Shown here: piece after piece, positions 270 to 22,800 of the stretch | How the letters are laid out: the number at the start of each line of letters is the position of its first letter | Numbering within the stretch: position 1 is the first letter of the stretch | Source: Chromera velia | Taxonomy: Eukaryota; Sar; Chromeraceae | DNA: 25,833 bases | Reading direction: 5' to 3' | NCBI GenBank assembly: GCA_018398765.1 | Contig: JAHBMJ010003647.1 | Location: 61,369-87,201 of the forward strand | The notes under the pieces: generated by a model | Database searches by the model: none | What the model saw: only the letters and a program-made list of their open reading frames with translations | Told to the model about the DNA's origin: nothing | Translations under genes and position numbers: made by a program

Positions 270-1578
270 ACTCGAGAACAAAGAAGCCAAGCAGGTGCTA
301 ATAAAGAAGAACACCGAACTGGAGAGCAGGTGGGGGATGCAATGCCAATCTTGCCTGCGTGAGGTCGACGTGAAACGCGTAAGACTGGCGGTGCATATGT
401 GTGTGCCTGCGTGAGGTTAACGTAAAACGTATGAGACTGGCAGTGCATGTGTGTATGTCTGCGTGAGGTCGGCGTGAAACATGTGAGACTGGCGGTACAT
501 GTGTGTATGCCTATGTGAAGTCGGTGTGAAATGTATGAGACTGGCGGTGCATATATGTGTGCCTACATGAGGTCGACGTAAAACGCGTGAGACTGGCGGC
601 GCATGTGTGTGTGCCTACATGAGGTCGACGTAAAACGCGTGAGACTGGCGGCGCATGTGTGTGTGCCTACGTGAGGTCGGCGTGAAACGCGTGAGACTGG
701 CGGTACATGTATGTGTGCTTGCGTGAGGTCGGCATCAAACGCATGAGACTGGCGGTGCATGTGTGTGTGCCTGCGTGAGGTTGGCGTGAAACGCGTGAGA
801 CTGGCGGCGTATGTGTGTGTGCCTGGCAGTGCGTGAGGTCGGCGTGCACGCGTGAGACCGGCAAAGCAGAGAGGCTTTTGTGTACCCCCACACATATCTA
901 AATTATGTGCAGGACGGCTTCCGGTCCATTGACTACTGCGGCTGCCAGCATACTGTTGGTCTTTGGTCGTGCAAGTGAGAGGGACTCTGAGAGGAAACGG
1001 CAGAAGTCCAGTCAAAAGGACAGCCCCTCAGCCACTGAGCGCGAGAAAAAGCTACTCGAGAAGGGAAAAGCAGAGGTCCAAAAGATCATCACATGTCTGG
1101 TAGTCTCCTCAGAGGATGCCAAAACGGTGGGGATCATAAGAGAAGACAAGTACATGATCTCTTTCACAGCGGGGAGGGGGAGAAACGGTGGCTCCACTCC
1201 GGTTCCTCTTCGCTTCAGGGACGAGATTATGGTTAGTACATATGTGCATGCAGGATCTGATGCTGACGATCGAGGCTCAGTCTGAATGTGACTTTGAAAT
1301 CGTAGATACCGTTCACTGTGCTCGATCTCTCTGATAAGAATCGTACAATCAAAGAGGATGGCATTGCTCCACATCTCTATCTGTACTATTTTACCACGAC
1401 TGTACATCATCTGCTAGCTATTGTGTATTGAATTAATTTTTGTATGGAAGGAAGGAAGCCGTTGGTGGCAACACAACTTTATTTTCGCTTCCTTTCTTCA
1501 TTGCAGAGCTTCGCGAAGATAACTCTAGAGGCACGGGCCCAGCAGCTGAAGGAGGAGGAGGCTGTTCTCGGGGATTGA
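270..1578 (+). CDS. 3' part of a coiled-coil protein gene (three exons seen)
   Basis: Exons are 270-329, 913-1231 and 1507-1578. The upstream intron ends in TTGTTGTGCAG at 269. Intron 330-912 starts GTGGGG and ends TATGTGCAG; intron 1232-1506 starts GTTAGT and ends CATTGCAG. Phases match at both junctions: AG+G makes one Arg codon, and the second junction falls between codons. The first exon reads as a Lys/Glu-rich heptad-like stretch (LENKEAKQVL...), the second is highly charged with Ser/Arg/Lys, and the last ends in LKEEEAVLGD before TGA. No named domain is recognised. The charge pattern suggests a coiled-coil structural protein. The 5' end lies outside the window. The gene model rests on splice signals and phase, not on homology. 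Confidence 0.6.
345..870. repeat. 52-bp minisatellite inside an intron
   Basis: About ten head-to-tail units. The anchor GAGACTGGC recurs at about 381, 433, 485, 537, 589, 641, 693, 745, 797 and 854, so the period is 52 bp except for one 5-bp expansion in the last unit. Each unit also holds GTGAGGT, TGAAACGCG-like and TGTGTGTGCCT blocks. Units differ mainly by C/T and G/A changes. The array lies wholly within intron 330-912. It leaves one minus-strand frame open (563-1015), which I regard as an accident of the repeat. Confidence 0.9.
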
Positions 1579-1612: not shown

Positions 1613-1894
1613 ATGAACTCGGATAGCGATATGAAGTACGATAATCTTGATCTTGAAGCCCTGAAGGGAAGCGTGAAGAAGGCCAAAAGAGTCATGAAGC
1701 AGGAAAAGGCAGACTACAGAGCTAAGACTATCAATAAGAACAGGAAGGCTCCCATCAGTTTCATCAGCCAGATCGAAGACAGGAAAGAGAGAGCGGCCCC
1801 AAAGCACATGATCGCGAAGGCACCCCTAAGACAGAGAGGAATGCCCATCATCTCTATAGAGCGTTCCGTCGAGTACGGCTTGAAGAAGGCATAA
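1613..1894 (+). CDS. small basic hypothetical protein, possibly a terminal exon
   Basis: An open frame of 93 aa begins 34 bases after the stop of the upstream coiled-coil gene. It is rich in Lys and Arg (VKKAKRVMKQEKADY...) with acidic residues near the N-terminus, predicts helix, and ends EYGLKKA before TAA. All three frames carry stops between 1576 and 1616, so it is not a simple read-on of the upstream gene. It could be a separate short gene, or a last exon reached by alternative splicing of the preceding gene. An A-rich stretch follows. No family is recognised. Confidence 0.4.
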   Translation: MNSDSDMKYDNLDLEALKGSVKKAKRVMKQEKADYRAKTINKNRKAPISFISQIEDRKERAAPKHMIAKAPLRQRGMPIISIERSVEYGLKKA

Positions 1895-3319
1895 GCGCCG
1901 CATGGGGTTTTGAAGAAAAAATTTTGAGTTTAATCAACCGCATAGGTGCAAAACTGTATTTCAGTTTGAGTTTTCACTTTTTAAAAAAAAAAACTTTCCT
2001 CTCCGCACAACTGCTAGCATGCAACTGACTTGCACACGTCTTGAAATGCATGTATCTTTTGACTTATCGCCTCATGCACCGCATCTTAATTGTATGATCC
2101 GCCGCGCACGCATGCATGGTTGTATCACTTTACGTATGTACCGTATACACGCTGCAGCCGGCCGCATGCACGCAGACATGCATAGAATAATTTTATGATC
2201 GATTGATTGTATGGAGGAACGTCCGTGACAAGGGATCGATTTTGATGGAAGCTGACCACGCGCTGCCGCTGCCCGTATGTAAGGCTCTAATGCAATCACC
2301 GCAGACTTAAATTCTTAATCGGTACTATAACGTTCATGTAACAGTTATAAACAGAAGCGAATGCTATACACTGATATGAATTGTTAGTTTTTTTCTGATA
2401 TCAAATTGGTAGTTTTACACGCATTATCATAGACTGTAAAGAATTTGTAGTTTTAATTGAACGTGGAATCTTAATTAATCTTAGAAAGCGGCGAATGCTA
2501 TATGCTGCTAAAAAGAAAAAGAAATAAAATGTTTAAATCATTCTTTTATATACCTTATATGTTGAAGCAAAGTATAAATGAAATGAAGGTTGCCTCTTGT
2601 AGCTTAGAGGTTAACATATAAGATCATGGACCGAATGACCCCGATTCAAGCCCCCATTTAAGTCCCCGAGCATCGCGTTTTAAAAGTCTTAATGTTATAT
2701 CAAAGTAGCATAGCAAACTACACGGAAAGAACCGATTACCATAAGAATTGCCGAATAATTGTACGGTATTAAAGACTTTTGAAAGTCTTTCTAGAAGACT
2801 GCAGAACATGAAATCGGATCAAGAAAATCAGAACACATGCGAGCAAAATATCTGGGAAATGAAGTAAATTAAAAAGTCACACAACTCTTAAGCTGAGCGG
2901 CCTGGACCAGATCAACCTCACCAAGACTTTTGAATACCTCTGCGAGTACTCATTAATGCCTACTCCAACAAGTGGACTTTAACAAATAAAAAACTTTAAT
3001 GACTCACGGATTGAAATTGATGATTGATCATCATCTCAATAGCTAGGTTTTTAGTCATGCAGTCAATACGATGCTCAGCTAGCACTTTTTAAACCATCAT
3101 AGCTTGAGCTGCTTAATTTTACCACTGAGGTTTATCATACCTGGGCCGCTCACGTACGCGGCAACAGCGGGCGGCGGCGTCATGCCAGCATCTGAACCAG
3201 ATTCCGCTCACTCGGCTATGTTAACATCTTCGATTTTAATTAGACTTCAATCTCATTTCATGGATCGAAAAAGGTTAGCAGCATTAGCTTAGGTTTGATA
3301 ATTAAGTTGCTTTGCGTCA
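1895..3319. other. AT-rich intergenic region without supported genes
   Basis: Contains short A/T runs, several GCATGC/TGCATG motifs between about 2015 and 2185, and one tRNA-like element near 2600. Open frames here are short and without coding character. It separates the small plus-strand ORF from the 3' end of the minus-strand KH gene. Confidence 0.7.
2592..2665 (+). other. tRNA-like sequence with pol III A and B boxes
   Basis: TAGCTTAGAGG at 2600-2610 fits the A box and GATTCAAGCCC at 2643-2653 fits the B box, 43 bases apart as in a tRNA. TCAT...ATGA can form an anticodon-like stem with a 7-nt loop. The acceptor and T stems do not pair and U33 is missing, so it is not a working tRNA. It may be a tRNA pseudogene or the head of a tRNA-derived SINE. 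Confidence 0.35.
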
Positions 3320-4666
3320 TCAATTGATGTTCGCCTCCCATTCGTCCACTAGTTTCTCTATCTCGTTGCATGCGTGTGTAACCCTCTCCATTTTCCTCCT
3401 TATTCTTAGAGTGATTTCCTTGTCATCTGTTTGATCTTCCGGCGAGGAACAGATCCTCACACCGAACTTTGAACCCCATTTTTTTTTACCACTCTTCTCA
3501 GTCAAATTCCATGATGACTTTTTCTTCCCTTTTTTCCCACTGAGCTCGCTTGCACAGCTCAGGGGAACGCAAACGTCTTCAAAGACCCAAGTGTCCGAAA
3601 TCATCTGAACCGCTGCGGTCAGTTGGGATCCTTCAAGAGCCCGAATCTCAACCTCAGCACATTCTGAGTCATCTGTATCGGATATTTCGATGGCGGTGCC
3701 CGTTTTTTGAATGATGTCTTTGATGTTGGCACCTTTCTTCCCGATGACAAAACCAACATAGTTGTCCGCGACCAACAACCGAGTAACAAGCACATTTGGG
3801 ATGCAACGCACAATGGGTGACTGAGGGGGATCGAGGTAAAGATTTCGGAAGTTTCCAACAACGAGGAGCATATAGTCTCCCTCAGGGTCCTTCAGTCTCT
3901 CTGCCTGCCTCACTGATGGAGCCGCCCCCCGACACCCTCTCCATCGCGTTTTCACTTCCACCCGCCCCCTCCCGATGCTCCCTTCTTCCACAACACACTC
4001 AATGTCGTGGTCTTTTTGCATCTCCCCGCCTTCGTTCAACCATAGAACCTCCCGAACCCAGGACTGCCGCAACAGCCACTGTACGGCGTACTCCTCCCCC
4101 AATGCGCTTAGATTGGACGGAGGGAGGGACTCCGGCTCGACCAAATGAGTTTCTGACGCGTCCGACCCACTGTCTATGTCGTCTTCGACAATAAGCCAAC
4201 TTGGCGTGTCGTGCGACGTACGTGGCGCTGTGCTCGTGTGACTGTTGACACTCTTCACCTCTCCCCATAAGAGAACGCACTCGGGGACAAGGCTGTCAGA
4301 GAGAGCAGGAAGGTCTCGGGCCACTTGTGTCTGTTGTCCGGTTTTTCCTTTACCGGAAGAATGCTGTGTAGCATAAATTGCTACAGGACGGGTCGAGGGA
4401 TCGTGCGGATGGTCAACGCCAAGCTCTTCAAGCGCAACCTGAGCAGCGTTCTGCCTGGCAGGCTTCAAGGCCGAATGCCAAGGTGACCATGCACCCCATG
4501 AGACGAACAGGGCCTTCGCGAACGTTGAGAAGCTTGATGCGAGCACGGAACTTGGGGGAATGCACGCAATTGTTTCGTTGTTCTTCGATCTGATATTAAT
4601 ACATCTCCTCAGGGCGGCACCCCAGCATTGGCGCAAGCTGCTGGAGATGCTCCTGGAGCATGCCAA
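3320..4666 (-). CDS. DUF3883/NO VEIN-like plus KH domain protein
   Basis: Uninterrupted frame of 448 aa. Residues about 187-285 match the pattern of DUF3883 (NO VEIN C-terminal domain): GEEYAVQWLL, then NEGGE, KDHDIE (218-223) and VEVKT (236-240). The spaced Asp and E-x-K resemble a PD-(D/E)xK nuclease core. Residues about 296-358 are a KH domain with the GXXG loop GKKG at 309-312, which binds single-stranded RNA or DNA. Lys-rich stretches follow (370-400), then a charged helical tail. The N-terminus is rich in Ser and Arg with few acidic residues, so an organelle presequence is possible. The start at 4666 is the first ATG of the open frame; an upstream exon cannot be excluded. Diverges from the dehydrogenase gene across 885 bp. 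The cellular role is not known; a role in RNA or DNA handling is inference. Confidence 0.75.
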   Translation of the reverse strand: MACSRSISSSLRQCWGAALRRCINIRSKNNETIACIPPSSVLASSFSTFAKALFVSWGAWSPWHSALKPARQNAAQVALEELGVDHPHDPSTRPVAIYATQHSSGKGKTGQQTQVARDLPALSDSLVPECVLLWGEVKSVNSHTSTAPRTSHDTPSWLIVEDDIDSGSDASETHLVEPESLPPSNLSALGEEYAVQWLLRQSWVREVLWLNEGGEMQKDHDIECVVEEGSIGRGRVEVKTRWRGCRGAAPSVRQAERLKDPEGDYMLLVVGNFRNLYLDPPQSPIVRCIPNVLVTRLLVADNYVGFVIGKKGANIKDIIQKTGTAIEISDTDDSECAEVEIRALEGSQLTAAVQMISDTWVFEDVCVPLSCASELSGKKGKKKSSWNLTEKSGKKKWGSKFGVRICSSPEDQTDDKEITLRIRRKMERVTHACNEIEKLVDEWEANIN

Positions 4667-5049
4667 TATAATTGGCCATCCTCAAAAGTTTGGCACGAAA
4701 TATGTATTCCTTTCGATGTGCCTTTTCCACCCACGTGTAGGCGTGCACGGCTCTTTCAGTTTAATACGGGTGCTCCCTCGATGGAATCGGCAACTACCCT
4801 CACACGTTTCTTACATACAAATTCTGATCTCAAGGTCTCCACACGATTCTGTAGCTATACCAGATAGTATATAATTGTCCCCACACGGCGGGCTCGAGAC
4901 AGGTCGGAAGGAGCACATCTGCCATACATCTGCCAACCGTCTGCCTGCGTGGCCGGATGATCTCGGATCCACCGTCATGCATGGCGCAATCCTTCAGAAT
5001 TAACTCGGGACGCGAACACAGACAGTCTGTGCAACAGGCATACAGGTGT

Positions 5050-5240
5050 TTGCAACACATGCATATATATATATATACGTATATATAAGCTGCATCATTC
5101 GCTTGAGCAACATGTGAGCATGCATGCATGCAACACGTCGAAGTGTTGCATGCAACTGCAACTTGCCTGAGCTGCTCGCATGCATGCACATGCATGCACG
5201 CGGCTGCATGCATGACCTCGCTGCATGCGCGCGATCTCAT
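5050..5240. promoter_or_regulatory. TGCATG motif cluster in a divergent promoter region
   Basis: About eight TGCATG/GCATGC hexamers lie in the 885-bp space between two divergent genes (starts at 4666 minus and 5551 plus), most between 5117 and 5228, next to an alternating TA tract at about 5064-5088. In apicomplexans the same core is a known ApiAP2 factor site; that this host uses it so is inference. TGCATG also appears by chance at splice acceptors here (TGCATGCAG). Confidence 0.4.
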
Positions 5241-5550
5241 ATGTACGCGTCGTCGGATCAGACTCATGAAGGTCAGACGTTTGAAGAACTATTCATTCAT
5301 AGCACGGAAAAGTCCCCTTGGTACACACGAACTCATTCTCAGAAGCCATAGTACACTGCAAAGCACGCTTCTCTACGCAGAAACTGTGAACCCAAAACAG
5401 CCACGCAAGGAAACGGTTGAGCAATTGTCTTACCTTCGGAGATTGAAGACAAGTGTTGCTTGTGACCCTCGTTGGTCGTTGTACCTGCCGGCGCAACAGT
5501 TGTGCCGACTGTCTTCTGCACCTCTCCAAACCTGTCAAATAGCTTGGCAG

Positions 5551-8474
5551 ATGAAGTGCGTCCGCCTGTTGTTTTCCATTCTCTTGGGGGCCACCCTGGG
5601 TTCCTGTGAGATTAAGTGCAGCAACCCGAAATGCCTTGGGGAGGTGGCCGCTGTCGGCACCCCGGACAACTTCGACTACGACCCTGAGAAGAACAGCCTG
5701 CACCATGACCTCACAGGTGCTCACATTTTGATTTTGGGGGACTCCAGGGGGTCGGGGAGGGCAACAGTCTTGCAGATGCTGGAGGTTGTCGGGAGCACCG
5801 GAAAGGTTCTTGGAGGCTCCCGAACTCCAGTGTCTGATTTGGACGAGACGCTAAAAGATTTGAATGACAATGACAGTCGGTACGTTCATTTCCAGTTCGA
5901 CATGACAAAAACCCCGTCTTATGAGTATTTCAAGAACGTCACGTTGGAGAATACTGAAGTCGTCATTCCTGGAGACCTGGGGGCTGATTACACAGAGCTG
6001 AAGAACCAAATCGAAACTTTCCTCGGGGGGAAAATCGACCACGTCATCGCTAACGCAGGCCTTCTTGCTGCAGGTGCAATTGCAGACGTTCCATGGTCAG
6101 TGGGACCCCGCCTCGTCTAATTCTCTGCTCTTCCTTTTTGTATTTCCCCGTTCCAGCTCCATCGCTGGCTACCCTTGCGTGTCATAAATCTCTCTCGTCT
6201 GGGGGCACGTAACCGAACGCCTCCCTCATTCAGCACGTCGTGTCGTACTTGTCATGGATTCCTCCTCCTCCATCCCCTCTTGCTTTCATCTTGCTGCTTA
6301 GCCCTTTCTCCAAACAACACTCCACCCAGTTCTCCTCATCTCCCGCGTCGATTTTTCCACTTAATTTTTCACTTATTCTCGAAGCTCTTCGCTTTCTTTG
6401 ACCGCCGCCGCTCCTCTCTCTTTCTTTGTGTGGTTGTGTGCATCGTCACCACTTTTTCCTTTATTAAGACCTCCAAGCGTTCTTGATGGGACAACAAAAG
6501 TCGTACAATCCCCTGCACCCACCTCATGCACCGTCTGATGCCCGCTCTTGCAGGTATCACTTCAACGCCAGGGCTCGTGCAGACCTTGCAGACCACGCTG
6601 TTTGGGACACCGTGAAAGAGTACATGAATACAGAGTACGGCACATGGATCTCTCTGGCGACTCTCGACACACGCATCCACCTCGACGTCACCGTGCCGGG
6701 GTATCATTCATCGAAGGCCTACAGGGCCCTCTGGGCTCTCGACATGCACGTCCGTCCGTCCGTCCGTCCGTCCGTTGGTTGGCTTGTTGCACGTCCGGTC
6801 CTCTGTTCGTTGGTTGGTTGCACGTCCAAAGTTCTGCTCGTTGGTTTCCCTTCCGTACCCGCCAGGCACACATGGACTATCTGCATTGTTCTGGTGGTAG
6901 TGGTAGCATCCATTAGATGGCTGTCCAAACGTCACAGAAAAAAAATGAAACGAGTCTACTGAATGAGATTTCAGTAGAGTGGATCTTCTTTTGCCTCCTC
7001 TTTTTTTTTTTGCCTTCTCGGCAGTCACTTTTGACCCGCGTGAAGCATTGGTTGCGGTGATTTTCATGTCCACGAAGCATCACGGGACCAACCCACCTCT
7101 TGCCCAGAGAAGTCCTCCTCCGTTGGCATGACGAGAATCATCCACGCTGCTGTCTCCCTGCCCGCCTGCAGGCGACGACTCGAGACCACCCTAAGTGGAA
7201 GGGTATCCGTTTTGTGTCCCTGGAGCCTTCCTACGTAGATTCCCCCATCAGTTTTCCTCAACACATCGTGATCCCCCCAGAGGAAGACTTTGACTGTCCT
7301 AACACAGTCAACAGAACGATCCTCCTTGCGCAGCTGCTTCTGAACTCCCCCCAAATTATCCCCGTTCTGCCATCTGAAGTCGGTGCAATGATCTTTGAGG
7401 TCATCGCAAGGAAGGACATCGGAAAACCGTTCCCCGACCTTAAGGGTGGCGCTGTACCGAATAGGATCTCTGTTTGGCCTTCGCGAGAGAGAGCTCGAGG
7501 TGCTCTGGGAAGTCTGCCCAGAGTGATTGGAGAGGGAGGCAAAATCGATTTGGACAACCTGTACAGAAACACGCCGTATTCTACCATCGAGGCCCTTCCA
7601 GGATCCGAGCTGGCGTTTGGTCTGATTGGAGTTCGGTGTCGTGACCAGACTCTAGATGATGTCTGGAAGGAATTCGGGATCGAACCTGAGGGAGTGAACA
7701 GAGCCAGGGTGGAGGGGTCCGTGCTGGGAGAAGTGTTCTTTGATGCGCTGCAGACTGACAGAGAAAAAATTCTGCGGTCAGCCGCGGGACGGATCGAAAG
7801 AAGATCCTTTGTGATTCCTTTGTGTGTCAACACGTATCCTTTTGAGAATTTTCTGTGCGTCCTATTTGAGACAGAGCGCCCATCATGTTGGCTGACTCAA
7901 AATTGGCGAAAGTCTTACTTGCTCTCTTCTTTCTTCCCTGCTGTTTCGGTGCTAAAAATTCCTCCCTGACTCCGATCACTCCCTCCCTCCTTGTTTGTGC
8001 TTCTTTCTGCATGCATGCAGTTGGTATGCCCAAAAGGGCCTCGCAGATGAGGACGACTACGAGGAGGCCCTCGCAAAATTGGGGATTGACTCTGAGAAGG
8101 TAGACCAGAAGGTGTTCGAAGCCAACGAGGCTTTCTGGCCTCCTGCAGTGGCACTCGCAGAGGACCTCAACAGGTTGAATCTGAAATTTGGAAAGGGGGT
8201 GGCGGCTCCAGAGGAGGGGGACGGAACCCAAGCGACCCCCGAGGCGATCGAGGGTCTGGAGAACAATCCGAATGCGAAGCTGTATCCTCTCTTCCAAGAT
8301 TTCAAATTCGCTGCAGAGAAACCGTTGGAGTCGAAAGAGCCAGTGAAGGGCCAGTGGAATCCGTACGAAATGGGGGGAAAGGACTCACGAAGTGGAAATT
8401 TAGCCACGCCATCGGGAGTCAGAATTGCTGCCGATCGCCTCACGGGAGGGAAGGGCGAGAACAAGGATGAGTAA
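5551..8474 (+). CDS. secreted/ER-targeted short-chain dehydrogenase/reductase-like protein
   Basis: Four exons: 5551-6095, 6554-6749, 7172-7821, 8021-8474. They sum to 1845 nt, i.e. 614 aa plus TAA, with matching phases at all three junctions (for example TG+G gives Trp across intron 1). Residues 1-19 form a signal peptide (MKCVRLLFSILLGATLGSC). The Rossmann glycine motif GDSRGSG is at 63-69, NAG at 168-170, the catalytic YxxxK as YHSSK at 232-236, and the following PSYVDSP near 265 fits the SDR 'PG' motif. These support NAD(P)-dependent oxidoreduction; the substrate is unknown. At 614 aa it is about twice the length of a classical SDR. The C-terminal ~340 residues show no domain I know and end in a charged Gly/Lys/Glu tail. 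The start was chosen because the signal peptide begins there; the open frame runs further upstream without coding character. Confidence 0.8.
6749..6775 (+). repeat. (GTCC)n microsatellite at a 5' splice site
   Basis: Six GTCC units begin exactly at the donor of intron 2 of the dehydrogenase gene (exon ends at 6749). GTTG-rich and CACGTCC-containing repeats follow to about 6850. Any of several in-register GT dinucleotides could serve as donor; only the first keeps phase 0 with the acceptor at 7171 without adding residues. Confidence 0.7.
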
Positions 8475-9898
8475 ATAGATTTATTTATTTACTGAAGCAT
8501 CTTCTCGTCCAGCCAGTCAGTGTCAAAGTTTGTCCCCATCCATCTGTCTCTGCTTTGATCGGATATAAGAAAGCAAAAAGTCAAATACGAGAATGGAAAT
8601 CTGCAGCATTGACCCCCATAAGTCTTCCTTCTGTTTATTCTCGGTAAGGCAGAATTAGAAAGGGGCACATGCAAGGAGGAAGAAAGGAAAGTCTCATTGT
8701 ACATGAAGAAGAAGCAGGAAGACATGTTGGTTGAGAGCTAGACTGCAGGCAGGCAGTCAAAGAGACAGACAGACGGATGGTTCCAATGGCAGAAAACCAG
8801 AACAGGGCTGTCGCCCGGGTTGGAAGTTGGAGCAACAGCTCCGATTGATTCAATGCGACCTGTATGTGGTGTTTCATTCAAGTGGAGTGTCCACGCAGTG
8901 CCACTTGCGGCAGAGCAAGGATAGACAGAAAACATGCCTGTTCATGTGGCCTATATGTAGAATTGAAAAGAGTTGTACGCATTAAACGCATTGTTTTATA
9001 ATACAACCGCATGCCTTTTCTGAGGCTTTTCATACAATTTGAACTGAGAACGCGCCGCTTTCAATTATGATGCGTACGTAAGCAACTGAATGACAACTAA
9101 TAGACATTATACGTGCATATAAGTATCTAAATTACCAGCTAAATTATTAAGTTCAAATATAGAAAGAAAAAATATAAAATCAATATGAATAACTTACTAT
9201 TGAAATAATACCATACGCAGTGAACATGCAATTAGTATTTTTTTTTTAATCCTATAGTTTGAATCTTTGATTGATTGATTGATTGATTGAGGGTTAAAGC
9301 CTAAATCCAGCGATGCCAGACCCTAAGCCACTAACAAGGCTTTGAGGACAACCCCATGTTATGTAAAACGCTCACTCAACTAAGGTTCTATGGGGCATTT
9401 GAACGCTTGTAAAACTATGCGTCCCCTTCGCTTTATCTATAGTTTTGAATGCATGCGGGCCATGAAAAGCTAGGCTGACCGCTAGGCTGACCGTTTTTAG
9501 TCTCGTTCTAGGTGACGCACAGTGGTAAAAAAAAAAAAAAATAGACATATCGAGATTTTTTTTTTCTTTTTTTTTTTTCTGGTGGTCAAAGATCTAAGCA
9601 AACTTAGCAAAAGTATAGGTTTTGTAGGTAGATGTGTTTTTGTTATATGTTTGGCACTTCCAATTAATAAAATAATTAAAAAAAAAAAAAAAGATTAGGG
9701 TTCTCGAGATTTTTTTTTTCTTTTTTTTTATCACTATGCGTCGCCTAGGTCTCGTTAGAGTTCATCGATTCTTGAACAATAAATCGAACAATAGTATACC
9801 AACTATTACCAAGTATAACATACATGATACATCTTGACGGTGCAAGTTGATACTCAGCAGTGGGCCACGGGAAAATCGATCTGGAATATTGACCCTCA
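8475..9898. other. gene-poor region with microsatellites and A/T runs
   Basis: After the dehydrogenase stop come a likely 3' UTR and AT-rich DNA. It holds a TTGA microsatellite (9267-9290), a short tandem duplication of GCTAGGCTGACC near 9472-9493, and two similar blocks (about 9525-9580 and 9676-9730). Each block has an A run of about 15, then TCGAGA, then a long T run broken by one C. I see no gene. Confidence 0.65.
9267..9290. repeat. (TTGA)n microsatellite
   Basis: About six TTGA units. The same unit reappears inside the Rep remnant at 11331-11358. Confidence 0.85.
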
Positions 9899-9989
9899 AC
9901 TCCTGTAGTCGCTCTTCTGTAGTCACCCCTCACCGCCGCCTAGCATTGCCACCCCCAACCGCCCGGGGCGCTTCCCCGCCAAGCATTAC
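9899..9989 (+). repeat. GC-rich repeat copy L with CRESS-origin-like end
   Basis: About 90 bp, nearly identical (mostly transitions apart) to two inverted copies at 14893-15056. It contains two TGTAGTC words, a block GCCTAGCATTGCC, a C/G-rich core CCCGGGGCGCTTCCCC, and ends in AAGCATTAC (9981-9989). That ending is one base from AAGTATTAC, a nonamer form found at rolling-circle origins of circular ssDNA viruses. It starts 22 bases beyond the stop of the Rep remnant, so it may be that replicon's non-coding region. That link is inference. Confidence 0.6.
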
Positions 9990-10521
9990 AAAAAAAAGAA
10001 GTATCATTTATCAAATTCTCCCAGTTACTTGTTGTTTGGTATGATCCATTGTTACATCAAGGCGACAAAGCAGCTGGATGTTGCATTCATTAGAAACTCT
10101 GTGGTAAACCATCTCTGGATGAAACGCTGATGTTACAATAATGACCCACGGTCAAAACTGTCTGGAACCTCCTTTGAATTCAACTTTTATCTCATAGTGA
10201 TCAAGTAGATCCAAGGTATCAGTAAAAGACCACCAAAATTTATGAAAATCATCAAGAATGACTCCTTGGTGAGCATCATAACCGTCCTATCATCTCGTTC
10301 CATGCAATTTGCGATAATAATCGTCACCAACTAGGTCACCAAACAAGAACTGCATCACCAAATCAGCTGTCCAACTTTTTGCAGTACCAGTCGCCCCATA
10401 AAACCAAAGAATAATGAGTTTCCATTTCCTGGGAGGTTCATGATAGTTAAGAAAACGTTCGGCAACCTTGATCTGCTGATGGTTCCCTATCCGCGAGACT
10501 GTACGCAAACCACCATCCTAG

Positions 10522-11092
10522 GGGGCAGCACTTCTGGTGTATATACTAGATTTTAGAGCTAATATCACCAAAAAAAGTGAAAATTTCATTTGGTTTTTTA
10601 GTAACAAAATATTTTTCAGGTGTGGCTTGACGAGTTACTCCCAAAAAATATAAAATTTTGGTGTGAGTTATTTGTTGTATTATTATAGGTTACAGGGGTT
10701 AAATACATGTCGCTTCGTGATGTTACGGGTTACTCGGTTAGAGGTCATTTTAGGTCAGTAACCATCATTCAAAGTCCATCTTAAAAAGTGTTTACAAGTT
10801 GTTTAAAACATGTTTAAAGACCTTATAGTGGACGGTTACTCACTTTTTATCAGGGGTAAAAAATGGTTACGGGTTACTCGGTTAGAGGCCTTTTTATCAA
10901 ATATTGAAGCGATACATCAAAATTATGCAATTATTCAAGAACCATAAAGTGTTTTAACCTTTTTGAGATGTTTTTAGAAGTAACTTAAGCTAAACAATCG
11001 ATTGGCACCACTTTTAAAGTGCTAGGTGATTGATATATACGGGAAGGGGGTACTAAAATCACTAAAAAAAAAATAGTAACCATCCTGGAGTG
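10522..11092. mobile_element. insertion of unknown type inside the Rep remnant
   Basis: About 570 bp of AT-rich non-coding DNA separates the endonuclease and helicase halves of Rep. It is flanked by two imperfect copies of a 22-23 bp stretch (10499-10521 and 11093-11114) sharing CTGTAC, CCACCATC and TAG. Inside is an exact 23-bp direct repeat (10722-10744 and 10866-10888) containing GTTACTCGGTTAG. Near the ends, TAGATTTTAG and the complement of ACTAAAATCAC form a weak inverted pair. It could be a non-autonomous transposon. An intron is the alternative, since a GTGAGA donor-like word lies at its Rep 5' side. Confidence 0.4.
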
Positions 11093-11330
11093 CTGTACTC
11101 TAGCCACCATCTAGAGCAAGCTGTTAATTGTGGTCTAAATCTCACCGGTTTCTTTGTTTGGAAGAATCTCCTTGCTTCACGAAGTGACCCAACTTCTTGC
11201 AGTACTGGATAACCTGTTGTGCTGTGCCTGCTCTGCGTTCAATGTGGGTAGAGTTGGCGAGACATCTCTTCAGGCTTTCAAACTTGCTTAGATGTTTCAA
11301 CATAGCGGGAAGGCCCTAGGGCGGAACATA

Positions 11331-11358
11331 TCAATCAATCAATCAATCAATCAATCAA
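11331..11358. repeat. (TCAA)n microsatellite within Rep coding DNA
   Basis: Seven TCAA units. On the Rep strand they read TTGA repeats right after motif II, and they change the frame between motifs II and III. Confidence 0.9.
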
Positions 11359-11511
11359 CTCGCAGTACCCTTGTAAATGAGGCGTTCTACGATCAGAAAT
11401 CTCCTTTCCAAAGACAATGTAAGAGAACGGAAGGTTCTGTAGCCGCTTAACATCCTTGTCTGTCCAGTTATTAATGGTGAAACAGAAGTTTCGGAGTTGA
11501 GGTTGTGGCAT

Positions 11512-12026
11512 TGTTGCGATAGTTTTTTTTTATAAGGAGACGGCTTCTCTTTATATTAAGCTGATTTGATGCATAAGTCATGCGGCATGCAATGGAACAT
11601 GCAGGATACCCCCTTCAGGGGTATGCCGGGGCTCTGAAGAGAGAATTCTATACGTGTGTCGATTTCAATACTTCAAGTTGAGTTAGAGGGGATGCAAGTA
11701 AACTAGATCGACCCATACGTATCCATCCGTGCAAACAGAGTGAGTGACATAAACAGAAATAAAACAGCGTTCTTATATCGTTATCATACCACGAAGATTA
11801 AAGAAGAGCTTTGTCATTTAGTTTTATCAATTCGATTGTAGTTTACATCAAATGTTTTTATTGTAATTAAAAGTTATAGTTTTGCTGATTAGAAGAAAAA
11901 AAAGATAAAAAATGATAAACAAAATATTTAATTTTTGACTAGTTATAGTATGACGATGTGACCAATTTAGTATTACTCGAATTATGTAGAATGATAGGTC
12001 ATGCTATCTATGTTTTGCCAATGTAA
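11512..12026. other. AT-rich spacer upstream of the Rep remnant
   Basis: No gene seen. It contains a T run, a perfect 7-bp stem with 5-nt loop (ATACCCC...GGGGTAT, 11606-11624), and AT-rich sequence up to the start of the ATPase remnant. Confidence 0.6.
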
Positions 12027-13433
12027 ATGGGATCAAAAAAGGAGGGTGTTGTAGCTTACATGAATTGTAAAGTTGTATGGCAATGGTCCCCCAGGAGAGA
12101 ACACTGTGTTCCTCGCCACTCTGTTTCTCGGACAGTATCTCCACTTTCCTTGCATGCAGTGGGTGAAGAGGGCGCCTCCAATCTGAGAAGATGGAAGGGC
12201 ACCCCGAGACTTCCTTACCTCAACCATCTGAGGTACAGGAATGACACAAATCAGTATGTGAACGAAGAGCCGTCCGATTCCGTATTCATGGTATACGGGC
12301 CAAAGTCGGTCGGCAAGATGCGGACCTTGGAAGAACTGAGAGATCAGTGGAGAAACGAAAGTCGACTGGTCATCGACCTAGATCTGAAAGACGAGGCGTA
12401 CCAGGTGGCAGATATTGGCCGCTTGTTGTGGGAGGTCTTGAGAGAGGAAGGAGACCGGCTGGATTTGAATTTCTGACAAATAGCAGGGGAGGAGGCAGTA
12501 AAGCATTTGAAAGAAGGGAGTACATGCACCCTTACGTGTCTCCAACATTGACGCGTCACAAATCTTTCAGGCACTGACTGAGGTCGCGAAAGCGTTCTGT
12601 GAGGGAAATAGGTGGAAGGAGGTGGGGCTTGACACTCTCCAGGACTATATCCGCCAGACGCAATTGCCCCGACAGACCGAATGCCAGGTTTTTCTGGGGG
12701 TTTTGCTAGGGTTTTGGAGAGCCTCCATAAGAAGAAGCTCTGCCGTCCCATTTTGATGATTCAGGAAGCGCAGAATTTGGCGAGTGAAGAGGGTAAAGAG
12801 TTTGCTCTGGAGCTTTTCAATGCTCTACTGGCGAGCTTCAAATCGCAAAAGCAGGGAAACTCCAATGTCCCTGTCATCTTTGAGACTTTCGAATTTCTGT
12901 GGGCCAAGTTGTTGGAAGTCATGGTGGCTTCCGAGCAGTCATTCGAAGGGTACGAAGTGAAAGAGTGGTGGAAGAATGAAGGTCGGAAGGTGCTGGTCCC
13001 GAATATTTTTACAGAAGAGGAGTTTCAGAAGGTGTGGGATCTAGTGGGGGGGCATGCAGGGGAGCTATTTGAGCTCCACAGGCTGCTCAGAAGAGGGGCG
13101 ACCCTGGACGAGGCAATCCAGGGGAGGCTGGCTGCCAAGAGGGAATATTTGAGTGCACAGCTGCAGGCTGCGAAAGGGCGCGATTTTGAGGAGATGAAAG
13201 AGAAGAACGGGACCTTGACGGTGGCGGCTCTGAAGAGCACTGTCGAGGAGAGGCGAGTGAGTCTGCTCCACCAGCTGAGAAAGCATGACTGGTCCCTTCC
13301 TCTAAGTGTTGCGAAGAAGAAGGAGCTTCAGGATTCTGCCGACTACTTGTGCAAGGCCAACGTGCTCTGGCAGCGGCAGGATCCGAATGTTGTCGTTCCT
13401 GTTCACAGCACCATGAGAAACGTGCTCATTTGA
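12027..13433 (+). pseudogene. P-loop ATPase gene remnant
   Basis: Coding character is spread over two frames. The first (to 12476) has a Walker A-like GPKSVGKM at 12297-12320 followed by an acidic strand VIDLDL. The part from 12681 has a Walker B-like ILMIQEAQNL near 12747-12776, then a helical Glu/Lys-rich region ending at TGA 13431. This order resembles the ATPase_2/STAND-like P-loop families. A likely splice acceptor TTGCATGCAG ends at 12159, so the true first exon may lie upstream. Breaks: in-frame TGA 12474-12476, a frameshift near 12510-12530, and another near 12685-12700. Walker A ends in Met where Thr or Ser binds magnesium; ACG to ATG is one CpG transition. Function, if any, is lost. 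Its 3' end overlaps the minus-strand chromodomain remnant by 8 bp. Confidence 0.6.
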
Positions 13434-14454
13434 CATCTTGACGAGAATCCCGAGGTCGAAAGCCCTCGAGGTGACTGACGAGTTGGACGGTGTGTGAATC
13501 AGGTAAGTGAAGTGTGAGAGTGATGTCCACCCTCATTGACGTATGATTTTTATCCACCCGTCTGCATGGCAAGTGTACGAACCTTTTTGTTGCGTGTTGT
13601 CTCGTCTGGTGTGGTGTGTATTCGCCTCGAGGGGACGATGGACGTTGCTGTGCTGGTGGCAGTCGCTCGACTTGTTCAATCTGCTGCATGAGAGGCATTT
13701 CTCTTGTATTGCATTCTTCCATACTTTCTGCTTGAGATTTCTTGGTGCTGGATGCAAGTGCATCTCGCAGGATCAGTGACTGTTTTTCGCTTTCATGAGG
13801 CTCATCATCATCCATGATGTCGATGATCTTTTCCGGAAGGATTTCATCTCCTCCTTTTGCGTGGTGTGATGAATGGAACTTAGCAAGAAGATCTGGTGGA
13901 AGATTCGCTTCTGGTTCCCATGTGTCTCCTTCGGGACCGTATCCATTCCACCTCACTCTGTACTCCCTTCCCAGCACTCCCTCATGTATTTACAGAATTT
14001 TGTCAATCTTGAAAGGTGCATTTTCCATCTCCACGTCAGCGGACTGTACGGTCACATGAGCATCGAGTGAGACAGCAGCATCTGAAGTATGCGCAGACTT
14101 CCGTAAATCATGCAGTATTTCAAGGACTCCATCACATGGTTTGAATCCGAATCCCGTATGCCATTCAACCTCCTGTGGTGTCATCTTGCTCAGTTGCTGT
14201 TGTGCCCTCTTGCGAATCCTGTAGACGGCCACCTGGTTTCTCTGGAGCTCGACCGACGATAGACTGACTGAGAGCGGAACACAGTGGTCATCAATGAATT
14301 TTCGGTCCCGTCTCTGTTGATCCGTGAACTTGATGGTAAAATATGTGGTCATTTGGTAGTCCGGAGAGAAATGGATGTCGGAGTACAGGACATAACTCTC
14401 AAACCCAAATTTTGCATGGACAAGTGTTTTGAGCTCAAAAAATGATTGCAACAC
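13426..14454 (-). pseudogene. chromodomain protein remnant with unknown N-terminal part
   Basis: The frame runs from about 14454 to TGA 13426, with one in-frame TAA at 13990-13992. After the stop comes a chromodomain, about 13977-13870 ([11 protein letters not shown], then DTWEPEANL), which reads methylated histone tails in its family. The C-terminal tail is charged and unassigned. The ~155 residues before the stop (containing FSPDYQMTTYFTIKF and EVEWHTGFGF) match no integrase or other domain I recognise. There is no clear ATG at the 5' side. A CACGTCAG acceptor-like word just upstream allows a lost exon. It may be the tail of a chromovirus-like element or a captured host gene. Confidence 0.5.
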
Positions 14455-14892
14455 TAACTGACGTGAGTAGTTGGCAATCTACTCTTGTCGTCGAAGTGAG
14501 CTGTGTATTAGGGTGTTGAGTCGATATTTAAAGGGCACACTAGCAAAGAATGTATGTTCCACCAGCCTTAGTGTTCGGTATGGGAAATCTTGCGGAAAAA
14601 CAAGAAGACAAATCATATTAACGCCCCAAAGATAAGTCAAATGATACTGATTTAAGCGTTGTTCCGCCTTAGTAGCAATTCCCAGCTTAAATTATAGTTT
14701 GGGTTTTCTTATTAAAGACAATTGAAAAGCGTATAAACTAGGCCTTTCGACAGTTTGTAAACAAGATAAAGCTCCACCCACTGGCATTTTATAATTTTCC
14801 TTCTAATTTTCTGTTTATAAATTGTTATATATTTTTAGTCTAAAAATTTTGATCAACGTTCATTCAATTCAAATTAATTGTAAAAGCGAGTG
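14455..14892. other. AT-rich non-coding spacer
   Basis: No ORF of coding character. A TATA-like ATATTTAAAG lies near 14524. AT content rises toward the GC-rich repeat. Confidence 0.55.
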
Positions 14893-15056
14893 CCCCGGGC
14901 GGTCGGGGACGGCAATGCTAGGCGGTGGTGAGGGGCGACTACAGAAGTGCAACTATAGAAGTCAAGGGTAATACTTGGCGGGGAAGCGCCCCGGATGGTC
15001 GGGGGCGGCAATGCTAGGCGGCGGTGAGGGGTGACTACAGAAGTATGACTATAGAA
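14893..15056 (-). repeat. GC-rich repeat copies R1 and R2 with nonamer hairpin
   Basis: Two tandem units of about 97 bp, inverted relative to copy L at 9899. R1 (14968-15056) is almost full length and on the minus strand ends in AAGTATTAC (14976-14968). There GCCAAG and CTTGAC can pair as a 6-bp stem (one G-T) with loop TATTACC, the layout of a rolling-circle origin. R2 (14893-14960) lacks the nonamer end. A 14-bp perfect palindrome TACTACTAGTAGTA follows at 15057-15070. Function is inferred from form only. Confidence 0.6.
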
Positions 15057-18222: not shown

Positions 18223-18946
18223 TCATGCTCCGGGCGTAGTAAGTTGCGCATAATGAAGCGCCGTGAAACCCTCATTGTCCACAACATGTGCGTCGATCCC
18301 GTGGGACACAAGCATCTGAGCGATGCGGAACTTCTTGTGCTGATCCACCCCGATCCCTGATAGGTGTGTATTATACATAGCAGCCCACTAAAGGGGCGTC
18401 TTTCCGTCATCGTCTACCTCATGAACGTTGGCACCCGCTTCCAGGAGAAGCTCTGCAACATCCGCAGACCTAAACAAAGCTGCCGCAACAAGAACTAAAG
18501 TCTGATTTTCAGTTATCCCATTTGGGTCTGCCCCCTGGGAGAGCAGCAGCTCTGCGACGTCTCTGTAGTCAGAGAGACTCAGTCTGCTTTTGCCGCATGG
18601 AAGCACGGCAGCGTGCAAGGGGGAATGTCCCATCTTGTTCCTGTTATTCACCAGGGCCCCGAGGTCAAAAAGCCTTTCAGCAACCTCTCTCTGACCTCTG
18701 CCCACAGCTGCGTGAGGAGCGATATTCCCTTGAGCTGTTTTTGCGTTCAGCTCAGCCTTGCGCGCAAGAAGGGGAACGAACAGATCTACTAAACCAACCC
18801 TGGCTGCACAGTGAAGGGGTCTATATCCCAGGTTATTTTCTGCGTTTGGATTCGCCCCCCTCGAAAAGAGGAACCTTGCAATCGCGCCCTGACGCCTCAG
18901 ACAGGCTTCATGAAGAGCAGTGCCACCGCCGGCCTTAAAGAGATTG
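18223..18946 (-). pseudogene. ankyrin-repeat gene, C-terminal part (split by element A)
   Basis: About 240 codons read without gap from the target duplication at 18946 to TGA 18223-18225. Successive ankyrin repeats are clear: GTALHEACLRRQGAIARFL, GYRPLHCAARVGLVDLFV, GHSPLHAAVLP, DVAELLLSQGADPN, DVAELLLEAGANVHEVD, GFTALHYAQL. Ankyrin repeats mediate protein binding; the partner is unknown. An in-frame TAG at 18388-18390 sits inside the conserved TPL-x-WAA position, one transition from CAG. The first part of the gene continues at 23643-23925 on the far side of the retrotransposon. Confidence 0.85.
18942..18946. other. target-site duplication, left copy
   Basis: GATTG, repeated at 23643-23647. 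Counting one copy only restores the ankyrin frame across the insertion. Confidence 0.85.
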
Positions 18947-19781
<835 letters not shown>

Positions 19782-19797
<16 letters not shown>

Positions 19798-19847
19798 TGC
19801 CTCCTCGGTAGGGAACCCTTTCCATTGCACATGGTACTCTCTCCCTC
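19782..19847 (-). repeat. 66-bp inverted repeat, left arm (chromodomain)
   Basis: The reverse complement matches 22930-22995 without gaps with three differences, all A here against G there on the coding strand. One of these turns a Trp codon into the TGA that ends pol. Confidence 0.85.
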
Positions 19848-22800
19848 CTCCCCTGCCCCGCACGGCGACAACTCGCTCAACTTCGAACTCCTCCTCAGCC
19901 CAAGCGGGCATGCGGACTGACGGGGGACGGACGACTGTCCCTCCCCCTGACTGACAATAGGGCTTGCAGAGAGATCGGTGAATAACGGGGTGCTTTCGGC
20001 ATCCCGCAGGCAAGACGACCTCCAGATTGTCCCTCGGTAGAACCGCTTCAACCTCAAACGGTCCAAACCAGACAGAATCGAGCTTCCTTGCATACTCCTT
20101 CCCTTTCTTCACTAGCTGAGGCCACCACGATCGGTGCACCAAAACATACTGCCCCACCTGAATGCCATCGGTGGGACGCCGGTGCCGGTTCGCATACCTT
20201 GTTATGATCCCCTGTGCTGCCCTCAAAGACTCAGTTGCTGCTGCGACCATCTGTCGGTGTCCCTCCAGGAAGTCCTCAGCATCGAAAGACTGTTCGACCA
20301 AGGAAGGAAGGGAAAGGGAGGGAGGGGCTACTGCTTGTCGGCCTGTATCGAGAGTGAAAGGGGAAAAGGACGTCCCCTCATGGACTGAGGAGTTGTAGGC
20401 AAACTCCACGTCACAGAGAAATTCGGACCAGCGAGTCTGTTTCGTCTCAACCAGGCATCGGAGGGCCTCCTCAATCGTTCGATTCATTCTCTCAGCCTGC
20501 CCTACTGTGTCATGGTGACCGGAGGTGGAGAAATCGAGCTGAGTGCCCGAGAGGGCATGAAGAGTCTGCCAAAATTTCGAAACAAAACGGGGGTCTCGAT
20601 CGGAGACAATCTGCCTCTGATACCCCTTCTTGCACGTGACAAAGCGCCGATAGAGACGGGCAGTCTCTTCAGCACTTGCAATTCGATGGGTGGGGACGAG
20701 AATGGCTGCCTTGATCAGCCTGCACACCACCACCATGATGGTGTCGTATCGTTCATCCCCTGAAGGAGGGAGGTCGGTGAGAAAGTCCAGGCAGACTGAC
20801 TCCCATGGCTGCGAAGGAACGGACAGAGGGTGAAGCAAACCAGGGGGCAATGCGTTCGGACCCTTGCTGCGCTGGCACGGGTCGCAGGCCCGAATGTACA
20901 CCCCAACATCCCTCCACATCTTCGGCCAGTAATAGAGGGACGCCATCTTCTTGTAGGTTTTGTTGATGCCCAGGTGTGCGGAGTGGGGAGACGCATGGTT
21001 CTCTCCAATCACTTGCTTGTGCAGGGATCTTGGGACACACAGCCTGTCCCCACCATAATAGAGGAGACCGTCCCTGAATGTGATGTCTCGCATGCGAAGA
21101 GCGAGCTCGGGGGATGGGGTGGGAGGGCGGAGGGCAGACAGATTCCACACGATCGGGGAGAAGAAAGGGTCATGCGCGTAACCCTCTCTGCACTTCCGTA
21201 GAAATTCGCGAGACGGAACCGCAGAAACCTGCAGGACACGAAGCTCCTGCTCAGGGGCAGACGGTTCCTGCCGAGGGGCAGACGGTTCCTGTTGAGGGGC
21301 AGACGGTGGGGGGTTTCGGGAAAGAGCATCGGCAACTATGTTTGCCTTCCCCGGGATGTACTTCGGTTGAATCCCAAGCTCCTGCATGAACTCGATCCAA
21401 CGGCGGACTCGGGGGGAACAATGCTCAAACGAGCGGTGGTTGAAGTTTGTCAGGCTCTGGTGGTCTGTCCAGATCTCGGAATCTGCCGCCAAAAAGTGTC
21501 TCCACACTTTTGCAAAGTGAATAATTGCCAGAAACTCTAGCTCTCTGACCGGGTAATTCACTTCTGCCCCCGTAAGGCGACGGGAACCGAACGCGAGAGG
21601 ACGGAACCTCCCAGAGGCACAGTCTCTCTGCATAGCTACTGCCCCGATCGCTTGAGCGGACAGAGACGCGTCTGGGACCAGAACGACCGGCTGTTTGGGG
21701 TCTGGGAGTGCGAGCGTGGCGTGATCGAGCACAGCCTTTTTCAACAGGGGGAAAGCGAGGGAATGCTCGGCCTTCCAGTTGAAGGGAACGGTGGTGCGCA
21801 GGAGAGACAGAAGGGGTGCTGCGATGTGAGAAAAGCGGGGGACAAACCTGCGAAACCAGTTCGCAAGCCCCAAGAACTGACGCAGTCCTGTGCGGTCCTT
21901 GGGCTCCGGAAATTCCTGCAACCCCTGCAATTTCTCAGGAGCGGGACGAACGCCCCCCTCGTCGATCACGAGACCCAAAAACTTCGCCCACTTCTTCATC
22001 CAAGTGCACTTTGTCACTTTGACGTAGAGGTCGTGCTCCCGCAAGAGGGAGAGAACCCGGTGGATGTGCTCGACGTGTTCCTCTGGAGTGCGACTGAAAA
22101 CAAGAACATCATCAATGAACACAACGATACAGGAGTCAAGTAGGGGCCTGAGAACGTGCGTGATGAGGCGTATGCTGATGGAGAGGGCATTGCTCAAACC
22201 AAACGGCATAACTAGCCATTCGAAGCTTCCGTACCTGGTTACAAAAGCCGTCTTCTCCTCGTCGCCCTCTCGGATCCTCAGTTGGTGAAAATACTGGCGC
22301 AAATCGAGAGAGGAGAAGATCTTCGCCCCATGCAGGCAATTCAGCAAACCTTCTGGGTGAGGCAGGGGGAACTTGTCCTTGATCGTGATCTTGTTTAGAC
22401 CAGTGAAGTCAATGCACATTCGTTAGGTGCCGTCGGCTTTCTGAACGAACAAGACAGGGGCTGCGTAGGGGCTGCTGGACGGTCTGATGTGACCTTTCTC
22501 CAAATACGAGTCCAATTGCTTCCTCAGCTCGTCAAGCTGACCGAAGGACAGGCGGTATGGGGCCCTGGCAGGCGGCGTGTGCCCCGCCTCGAGTTTGATT
22601 TCGCATTCGATGGGTTGGTGGGGCGGGAGCCCTGGGAGTTCATCTGGGAAACGGTCGTAGTGCTTTTTAAGCACGGCACGGACACGGGGGTCCACCTCCC
22701 CCCCCTACAGATGCTTGCGGAGGCCTGCAAAGGAGGGAGAGTTGATCGGATGGTTGGGAGGGATGGAAGAGAGAGGCGGCGGGCCTCCTTGTTTCCCCCC

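What the first reader, a model, noticed from the sequence alone, without database searches (positions are those of the whole stretch)
10011..11511. CRESS-type Rep gene fossil in a eukaryotic nuclear genome
All diagnostic Rep motifs occur in order on one strand: FTINN, HLQGY, YCKK, then Walker A, Walker B and motif C of an SF3 helicase. The gene is broken by several stops, a microsatellite and an insertion, so it has been resident for some time. Endogenous Reps are known in other eukaryotes; one in an alveolate-like alga would extend the host range of circular ssDNA replicons.
Basis: partly seen in the sequence, partly recalled or inferred. Interest (0 to 1): 0.9.

Follow-up and report, generated by a model that had tools for sequence, protein, structure and literature searches.

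The report
Viral Rep gene inside algal transposon
A broken replication gene, once taken from a small circular DNA virus, appears to be part of a jumping element in the alga Chromera velia, and many ends of that element lie where such viral enzymes cut DNA, so the alga may hold the remains of a transposon that used a virus's copying enzyme.

Summary
In detail: window 10011-11511 (minus strand) holds a broken CRESS-type Rep with its motifs in order. The host is Chromera velia CCMP2878, where draupnirvirus-like Rep fossils were already reported (Kinsella 2023), so the host-range claim is not new. What I found beyond that is the context. Rep is one gene of a mobile element (window 9892-15056): end array - Rep - ATPase gene - chromodomain gene - inverted end array. 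Four Rep copies were found; two keep this order, a third keeps the parts but is rearranged. The ends are 96-102-bp units whose junctions spell AAGTATT^ACCC, the CRESS origin motif, and elements tend to stop at its cut point (12 of 22 ends in an 8-bp window, chance 3e-8). A related Rep-less element has empty sites without target duplication. Two Rep lineages diverged under purifying selection (dN/dS 0.13-0.18), apparently after one capture. Best reading: a transposon that took up a viral Rep and probably used it to nick its own ends. Rep's active role is inferred: most elements with these ends show no Rep, the viral-type hairpin is missing, and the chromodomain gene belongs to a far larger family. 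All four Rep copies are broken.

The parts
9892..15056 (.). whole mobile element (window copy), Rep-side end to chromodomain-side end
   Evidence: inverted end arrays at both sides; colinear with other copies; end read
9892..9989 (-). Rep-side end: one 96-102-bp unit, taken to start with ACCCTC at 9892 (aligner runs to 9887)
10011..11511 (-). broken CRESS-type Rep gene (HUH endonuclease + SF3 helicase), five open pieces
10518..11103 (.). 586-bp hAT-like insertion in Rep, 8-bp target duplication CCACCATC at 10510-10517 and 11104-11111
11330..11358 (.). ATCA microsatellite inside a short insertion in Rep, absent from the C3527 copy
12126..13433 (+). broken P-loop ATPase gene (ATPase_2 / AAA-like, below Pfam cut-offs)
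13426..14808 (-). broken chromodomain gene ('gene 3'), with a very weak T5orf172/GIY-YIG-like N-terminal region in another copy
14889..15056 (+). other end: about two units in inverted orientation, outermost bases missing

Best explanation
The Rep gene is one gene of a DNA transposon family of Chromera velia. An ancestor of this family took up a Rep gene from a CRESS DNA virus, apparently once. The element carries, between inverted ends, Rep, a P-loop ATPase and a chromodomain protein. Each end is one or more 96-102-bp units; where two units meet they spell AAGTATT^ACCC, the CRESS origin motif, and seven bases past the cut stand two 14-bp direct repeats that could be Rep-binding iterons. Proposed working: Rep bound these repeats, cut TATT^AC in the end units, stayed linked to the 5'-AC end, and passed that end to a new site by single-strand transfer, with the SF3 helicase opening the DNA. 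That would explain ends at the cut point, the lack of target duplication, and growth of the arrays by cutting and rejoining at one unit or the next. Shown: the Rep remains, the element, its copies, its preferred end point, empty sites of one related element, purifying selection in the past. Inferred: that Rep did the cutting and joining; the part played by the ATPase and the chromodomain protein; that elements without Rep were moved in trans. All four Rep copies found are broken.
For: Four Rep loci; the same array lies just beyond the Rep stop in all four, and inverted at the far side in three. In C2348 the Rep stop ends two bases before the array. Rep, ATPase and gene 3 keep their order in C3426 and C3521 (in C3521 gene 3 is split by about 7.4 kb); C2348 holds all three but is rearranged. 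Ends: 12 of 22 independent ends at unit positions 95-6 by aligner, P 3e-8 for a window chosen after seeing the data; 14 of 22 with two read by eye, 11 of these at the exact base and three 1-2 bases short. GTAATA (complement of TATTAC) is unvaried in the 70 scored junctions; chance of this motif with its cut exactly at the junction 1e-5 to 1e-4. Eleven of 11 fetched unoccupied copies of the C3596 site have just AC between the flanks, so no duplication, and the element begins AC there; C297 also sits at target ^AC. Rep lineages A and B: dS 0.91-1.08, dN/dS 0.13-0.18; within lineages 0.60 and 0.50. The ATPase splits likewise in the three elements that have both genes. The four Reps are one clade, support 1.0, among 120 Rep relatives.
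Against: Rep is recognised at only 4 loci, while array units lie on 20 contigs and gene 3 has at least 102 matches; the cleanest insertion (C3596) shows no Rep. The unit has no long hairpin with the motif in its loop. Inverted ends are not the layout of classical rolling-circle elements (recalled). By aligner 10 of 22 ends, by eye 8 of 22, do not stop at the cut point; among them is the window element's own far end. Of four target sites readable on unoccupied relatives, two have AC at the cut, C3521 has AG (with about 10 unlike bases at its other end), and C1188 has TC in 4, CC in 2 and CT in 1 of 7 relatives. Decayed junctions exist outside the 70 scored (e.g. C1710 innermost, C3432). C2348 carries its ATPase remnant inverted and some 11 kb of other sequence. 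Two captures from sister viruses, with selection acting in the virus, are not strictly excluded.
Confidence: 0.57

Rival explanations
1. Passenger: the element was moved by the products of gene 3 and the ATPase (or by an unseen transposase); Rep was picked up by one subfamily and did not act on the ends. The likeness of the junction to a viral origin is chance or reflects a captured viral origin.
For: Gene 3 has at least 102 matches genome-wide, Rep four. The ATPase lies beside gene 3 and convergent with it on 7 of 12 contigs with an ATPase match, and beside it but inverted on an eighth. Elements without a recognised Rep share the ends (C1710, which has a 5-kb gap of Ns, and C3596).
Against: Past purifying selection on Rep in one clade; ends at the cut point; no target duplication, which cut-and-paste DDE transposases normally leave (recalled). 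The one distant gene-3 copy looked at (C1391, 5 kb around it) shows no tandem array, no long inverted ends and no array-like junction; one chance-like motif match.
Confidence: 0.29
2. Plain endogenous viral elements: CRESS genomes integrated by their own Rep and were later copied with flanking host repeats by segmental duplication.
For: CRESS Rep and Cap fossils of C. velia are in print (PMC10193959); such integrations are described in Entamoeba and Giardia (PMC7493932, passages).
Against: Copies share ends and the neighbours ATPase and gene 3 rather than host flanks; the ends are inverted and recur at unrelated sites. No capsid family appeared in the Pfam scans made, though a capsid gene was not searched for as such.
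Confidence: 0.08
3. A complete linear replicon or DNA virus of C. velia with inverted ends and Rep-primed replication, of which these are integrated remains.
For: Inverted ends with a Rep cut site recall rolling-hairpin replicons (recalled, not tested).
Against: No capsid or polymerase family appeared in the Pfam scans made of element ORFs; not searched for further.
Confidence: 0.06

Closest known systems
Draupnirvirus-like endogenous Reps of Chromera velia (Kinsella et al. 2023, PMC10193959; passages and section 7 read)
   Same: Same host, same kind of Rep fossil; very probably these loci, since only four were found in the genome (inference).
   Different: The word 'transpos' does not occur in its main text; end arrays, partner genes and empty sites are not described in the section read.
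Geminivirus-like transposon of Tuber melanosporum (Liu et al. 2011, PMC3198968; passages read)
   Same: Rep-bearing repeated element with terminal inverted repeats and no obvious target duplication.
   Different: Geminivirus-like Rep with two transposase ORFs and 37-bp ends; here a Rep of the Viral_Rep (circovirus-like) kind, an ATPase and a chromodomain gene, and ends built of origin-like tandem units.
Helitrons (recalled)
   Same: HUH endonuclease, no target duplication, precise empty sites.
   Different: Here the helicase is of the Rep SF3 kind and the ends are inverted.
Replitrons (recalled; the paper was not held)
   Same: Eukaryotic transposons with an HUH endonuclease.
   Different: Not comparable here; no sequence or paper at hand.
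PDB 7lar, 'ATP-dependent helicase Rep' (that it is porcine circovirus 2 Rep is recalled)
   Same: Best solved match, E 6e-17 over residues 2-188 of a 189-residue open stretch of one copy.
   Different: Intact viral gene.

Membership tests
CRESS-type Rep | Viral_Rep endonuclease domain | tested here: met
   27.6 bits on piece 1, cut-off 26; 59.1 and 54.8 bits in two other copies, 23.5 (below cut-off) in the fourth
CRESS-type Rep | HUH motifs I, II and III with one tyrosine | tested here: met
   FTINN, HLQGY and YCKK in the window; motif II reads YLQGY in two copies
CRESS-type Rep | SF3 helicase with Walker A, B and motif C | tested here: met
   pieces align to five Rep relatives at E 5e-17, 2e-21 and 8e-7; no viral helicase model hit by the pieces in Pfam; Walker A of the window copy departs from GxxxxGK[ST]
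Draupnirviridae | Branches with named draupnirvirus Reps | not tested
   no named references at hand; the assignment is that of PMC10193959
CRESS origin of replication | Nonanucleotide NANTATTAC | tested here: met
   AAGTATTAC at array junctions
CRESS origin of replication | Motif in the loop of a 9-11-bp hairpin (stem length as in PMC7826260, passages) | tested here: not met
   two small hairpins flank the motif; z-scores -0.69 and -1.49 for one array stretch
CRESS origin of replication | Rep-binding iterons beside the motif | tested here: inconclusive
   two 14-bp direct repeats at unit 64-77 and 78-91, seven bases from the cut; binding untested
Rep-bearing TIR transposon (Liu 2011 kind) | Repeated, with inverted ends and Rep inside | tested here: met
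   three of four Rep copies have both ends, one of them rearranged
Rep-bearing TIR transposon (Liu 2011 kind) | No target-site duplication | tested here: met
   Rep-bearing C3521: none seen, about 10 bp unlike at one end; clean test on Rep-less C3596
Rep-bearing TIR transposon (Liu 2011 kind) | Separate transposase ORF | tested here: inconclusive
   no DDE transposase family among the element ORFs scanned with Pfam; not all ORFs were scanned
Helitron | SF1 (Pif1-like) helicase fused to the HUH domain (recalled) | tested here: not met
   the helicase pieces match Rep helicases
Replitron | Sequence relation to Replitron HUH proteins | not testable with these tools
   paper not held, no reference sequences

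The most novel reading that the evidence does not exclude
A distinct kind of eukaryotic transposon in which a captured CRESS-virus Rep moved the element by nicking viral-type origins that make up its inverted ends, i.e. a virus replication system turned into a transposition system, with arrays that grow by cutting and rejoining at successive origin units.
Probability: 0.43. Interest if true: 0.85.

Novelty: new variant of a known kind. Interest (0 to 1): 0.68.

Why it matters
How single-stranded DNA viruses and HUH transposons give rise to one another is an old question. Here one genome holds a Rep apparently captured once, kept under selection, sitting in a mobile element whose ends favour the enzyme's cut point, with readable empty sites of a related element. 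That makes the idea 'virus replication protein becomes transposase' testable in one alga, and it warns that some 'endogenous viral elements' may be transposon genes whose copy number and age say little about infection.

Tried and rejected
Contaminant join: rejected (four copies on four contigs; unoccupied site). tRNA or RNA-family explanations: no match. Canonical TAGTATTAC at window 11968 as the origin: not used; three NANTATTAC matches in the 25.8 kb of this contig held, one of them in the array, is about what chance gives, and the spot folds no better than shuffles. Free viral relatives in IMG/VR: one distant locus, L038, 31% identity; two further scans found none. GIY-YIG identity of gene 3: only a sub-threshold T5orf172 hit (13.7 bits, cut-off 20), none in a distant copy; not claimed. 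C2348/C3432 flank as an empty-site test: 4 matches, no empty site. Target preference for AC: 2 of 4, not claimed as a rule.

Full report
WHAT WAS CHECKED. The minus strand of window 10011-11511 carries five open pieces that together show the Rep motifs in order. Read separately, the first reaches the Pfam Viral_Rep cut-off (27.6 bits, E 3.6e-6); the second hits zf-H2C2 first (21.8 bits, below cut-off) and Viral_Rep weakly (16 bits, E 0.015); the third hits only Torsin below cut-off; the last two hit nothing. The helicase pieces match five Rep relatives at short-BLAST E 5e-17, 2e-21 and 8e-7 (small target set). The gene is interrupted by stops, by a microsatellite-bearing short insertion, and by a 586-bp insertion with an 8-bp target duplication and related ends, as in hAT elements.

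HOST. The window is the end of an 87-kb contig in a 177.8-Mb, 4040-contig assembly. The third gene of the element (copy in C3114) is 100% identical over 64% of its length to a UniRef protein of Chromera velia CCMP2878, so this is the chromerid alga C. velia. The published assembly is 193.6 Mb in 5953 scaffolds with about 30 Mb of transposable elements (PMC4501334, passages); its transposable-element table is a supplement that I could not read.

COPIES. Protein searches with the N-terminal and with the Walker A piece each found four loci: C3426 (the window), C3527, C3521, C2348; the Viral_Rep model found the same four, one below cut-off, and rang in 0 of 14 control genomes. All four are broken.

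THE ELEMENT. Homology between copies goes on past the Rep stop into a tandem repeat of 96-102 bp. A genome search with one unit gave 97 matches on 20 contigs. The repeat lies in one orientation beside Rep and in the opposite orientation on the far side: window 9887-9989 and 14889-15056, and likewise in C3521 and C2348; C1710 (with a 5-kb gap of Ns) and C3596, where no Rep was recognised, have the same inverted arrangement. Between the ends, C3426 and C3521 share, in the same order and orientation, Rep, a P-loop ATPase gene and a chromodomain gene, the last split in C3521 by about 7.4 kb. C2348 holds all three, but a 61-residue ATPase remnant lies inverted beside gene 3, about 11 kb of other sequence precede Rep, and a further Rep-side end piece lies at 1614-1765: a rearranged copy. 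C3117, C3114 and C1710 share the ATPase and the chromodomain gene. C3527 has Rep and its array but no partner within the 30 kb held. The ATPase matches ATPase_2, AAA_16 and AAA_22 near or below cut-off (27.3 bits against 27 for AAA_22); the chromodomain is clear (40.1 bits), and the region before it resembles T5orf172 only very weakly (13.7 bits). Of 12 contigs with an ATPase match, 7 have the chromodomain gene convergent beside it and C2348 has it beside but inverted. The chromodomain gene is a large family: at least 102 matches, with 100 of 241 candidates scored, mostly 30-40% identical.

THE ENDS. Reading outwards, arrays often stop after ...GAAGTCGAGGGT. Against a unit template 27 ends were read (24; C479, C1667 and C3597). 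Five were dropped: C3117 (contig end), C3432 (flank shared with C2348), two in C2003 (satellite-like surroundings), and C3114 (same locus as C3700). Of the 22 left, 12 end at unit positions 95-6 by aligner; chance 3e-8 for 8 positions in 96, a window set after the pattern was seen. Two more (C3596+, C3498+) read so by eye, 14 of 22; 11 of these end at the exact base and three are one or two bases short. Eight (by aligner ten) do not, among them the far end of the window element. On the other strand the end is 5'-ACCCTCG, and where units meet the sequence is AAGTATT^ACCCTCG, which fits the CRESS nonanucleotide NANTATTAC. PMC7826260 (passages) states that Rep cuts between positions -1 and +1 of this motif; that this is TATT^AC is my reading of those passages and general knowledge. 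Over 70 scored unit junctions from 12 arrays the six bases GTAATA are unvaried, and two 14-bp direct repeats lie seven bases from the cut; the chance that the motif falls exactly with its cut on the junction is 1.2e-5 (unit composition) to 1.2e-4 (equal composition). Decayed junctions exist outside the 70. The motif is only a little more conserved than other non-CpG positions (0.994 against 0.970), so conservation alone is weak evidence. There is no long hairpin, unlike the distant free relative L038, where TAGTATTACC sits in a good stem-loop (read by eye).

EMPTY SITES. The C3596 element, in which no Rep was recognised, lies in a high-copy repeat. Eleven unoccupied copies, picked among those where both flanks lie side by side, were fetched; all eleven read ...AATCA-AC-(flank), and the occupied site reads ...TTTTCAATCA|ACTCTCG...GAGGGT|TTCTTTG.... 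So there is no target duplication, and the element's AC lies on the target's AC. C297: flank ...CCAAAGA|ACCCTCG, unoccupied relative (C3521) ...CTACAGA^ACTAAC. C3521: unoccupied relative (C198) GTGATGG^AGATC, no duplication, some 10 bp unlike at the other end. C1188, whose end is one base short: TC in 4, CC in 2, CT in 1 of 7 relatives. AC at the cut holds in two of four, so it is not a rule.

HISTORY. Rep falls into lineages A (C3426, C3527) and B (C3521, C2348). Between them, on 169-268 codons, dS is 0.91-1.08 and dN/dS 0.13-0.18; within them dS 0.19 and 0.23 with dN/dS 0.60 and 0.50. The ATPase splits alike (C3426, C3114, C3117, C1710 against C3521, C2348; dS above 1 or saturated), while the chromodomain gene is similar in all six (dS 0.17-0.38). 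The match of Rep and ATPase lineages rests on the three elements that have both. It suggests that the two travelled together for long and that the chromodomain side was exchanged between lineages. In a 103-column tree of the endonuclease pieces with 120 Rep relatives, the four C. velia Reps form one clade (support 1.0); its nearest neighbours are weakly supported (0.74, 0.70). The relatives lie on contigs of 0.9-4.3 kb, and the best share 49% identity over the whole query (391 hits, 120 listed). This fits one capture from a CRESS virus, then use, then decay.

READING. That Rep is an integral and once selected gene of a mobile element I hold at about 0.80. That Rep itself made the ends and moved the element is the best explanation of end point, lack of duplication and origin-like units, but is inferred. 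Against it stand the few Rep copies, the many relatives without Rep, the missing hairpin, the inverted layout, the deviating ends and the mixed targets.

PRIOR WORK. C. velia Rep and Cap fossils: PMC10193959 (section 7 read; 'transpos' absent from the main text). A Rep-bearing transposon with inverted ends and no obvious target duplication in truffle: PMC3198968 (passages). In the rows listed by searches for C. velia with CRESS or Rep (20 of 7,534 rows, 15 of 62) and for Rep with transposons and inverted repeats (15 of 18, 2 of 2, 7 of 7) I saw nothing closer; the Replitron paper is not held, and most subscription journals are missing from the library.

Noticed in passing
window 19795-22419 (-): Ty3-type retrotransposon ORF with reverse transcriptase, RNase H, integrase and chromodomain matches.
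   Followed up: no
window 352-825: Minisatellite of nine 52-bp units.
   Followed up: no
window 9508-9748: Short element-like stretch with 34-bp inverted ends (CTAGGTGACGCACAGTGG...) just outside the Rep element.
   Followed up: no
window 18391-18705: Ankyrin-repeat ORF (Ank_2, 43.5 bits).
   Followed up: no
window 3323-4666: Probable host gene with a KH domain and a weak NOV_C match.
   Followed up: no
L026 (C3596) 3681-7440: Element with the same ends and no recognised Rep; two of its ORFs (216 and 230 aa) match no Pfam family above cut-off. From memory they recall NTPase-plus-nuclease proteins of the Crinkler/RHS kind; untested.
   Followed up: partly
genome G000: The chromodomain gene is a large C. 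velia family (at least 102 matches, many broken). I did not search for earlier descriptions of it.
   Followed up: partly
C3521 20693-24299, C297, C198: Another repeat family into which the Rep-bearing element and related arrays have inserted.
   Followed up: partly
L015 (C2348) about 1614-4691: Rearranged element: ATPase remnant inverted beside gene 3, and an extra Rep-side end piece outside the array.
   Followed up: partly
L027 639-1718: Tyrosine-recombinase-like ORF (Phage_integrase, 21.1 bits, cut-off 27.1) beside an element copy.
   Followed up: no
window 11968-11976: Canonical TAGTATTAC 5' of Rep; such matches occur at about the chance rate.
   Followed up: yes
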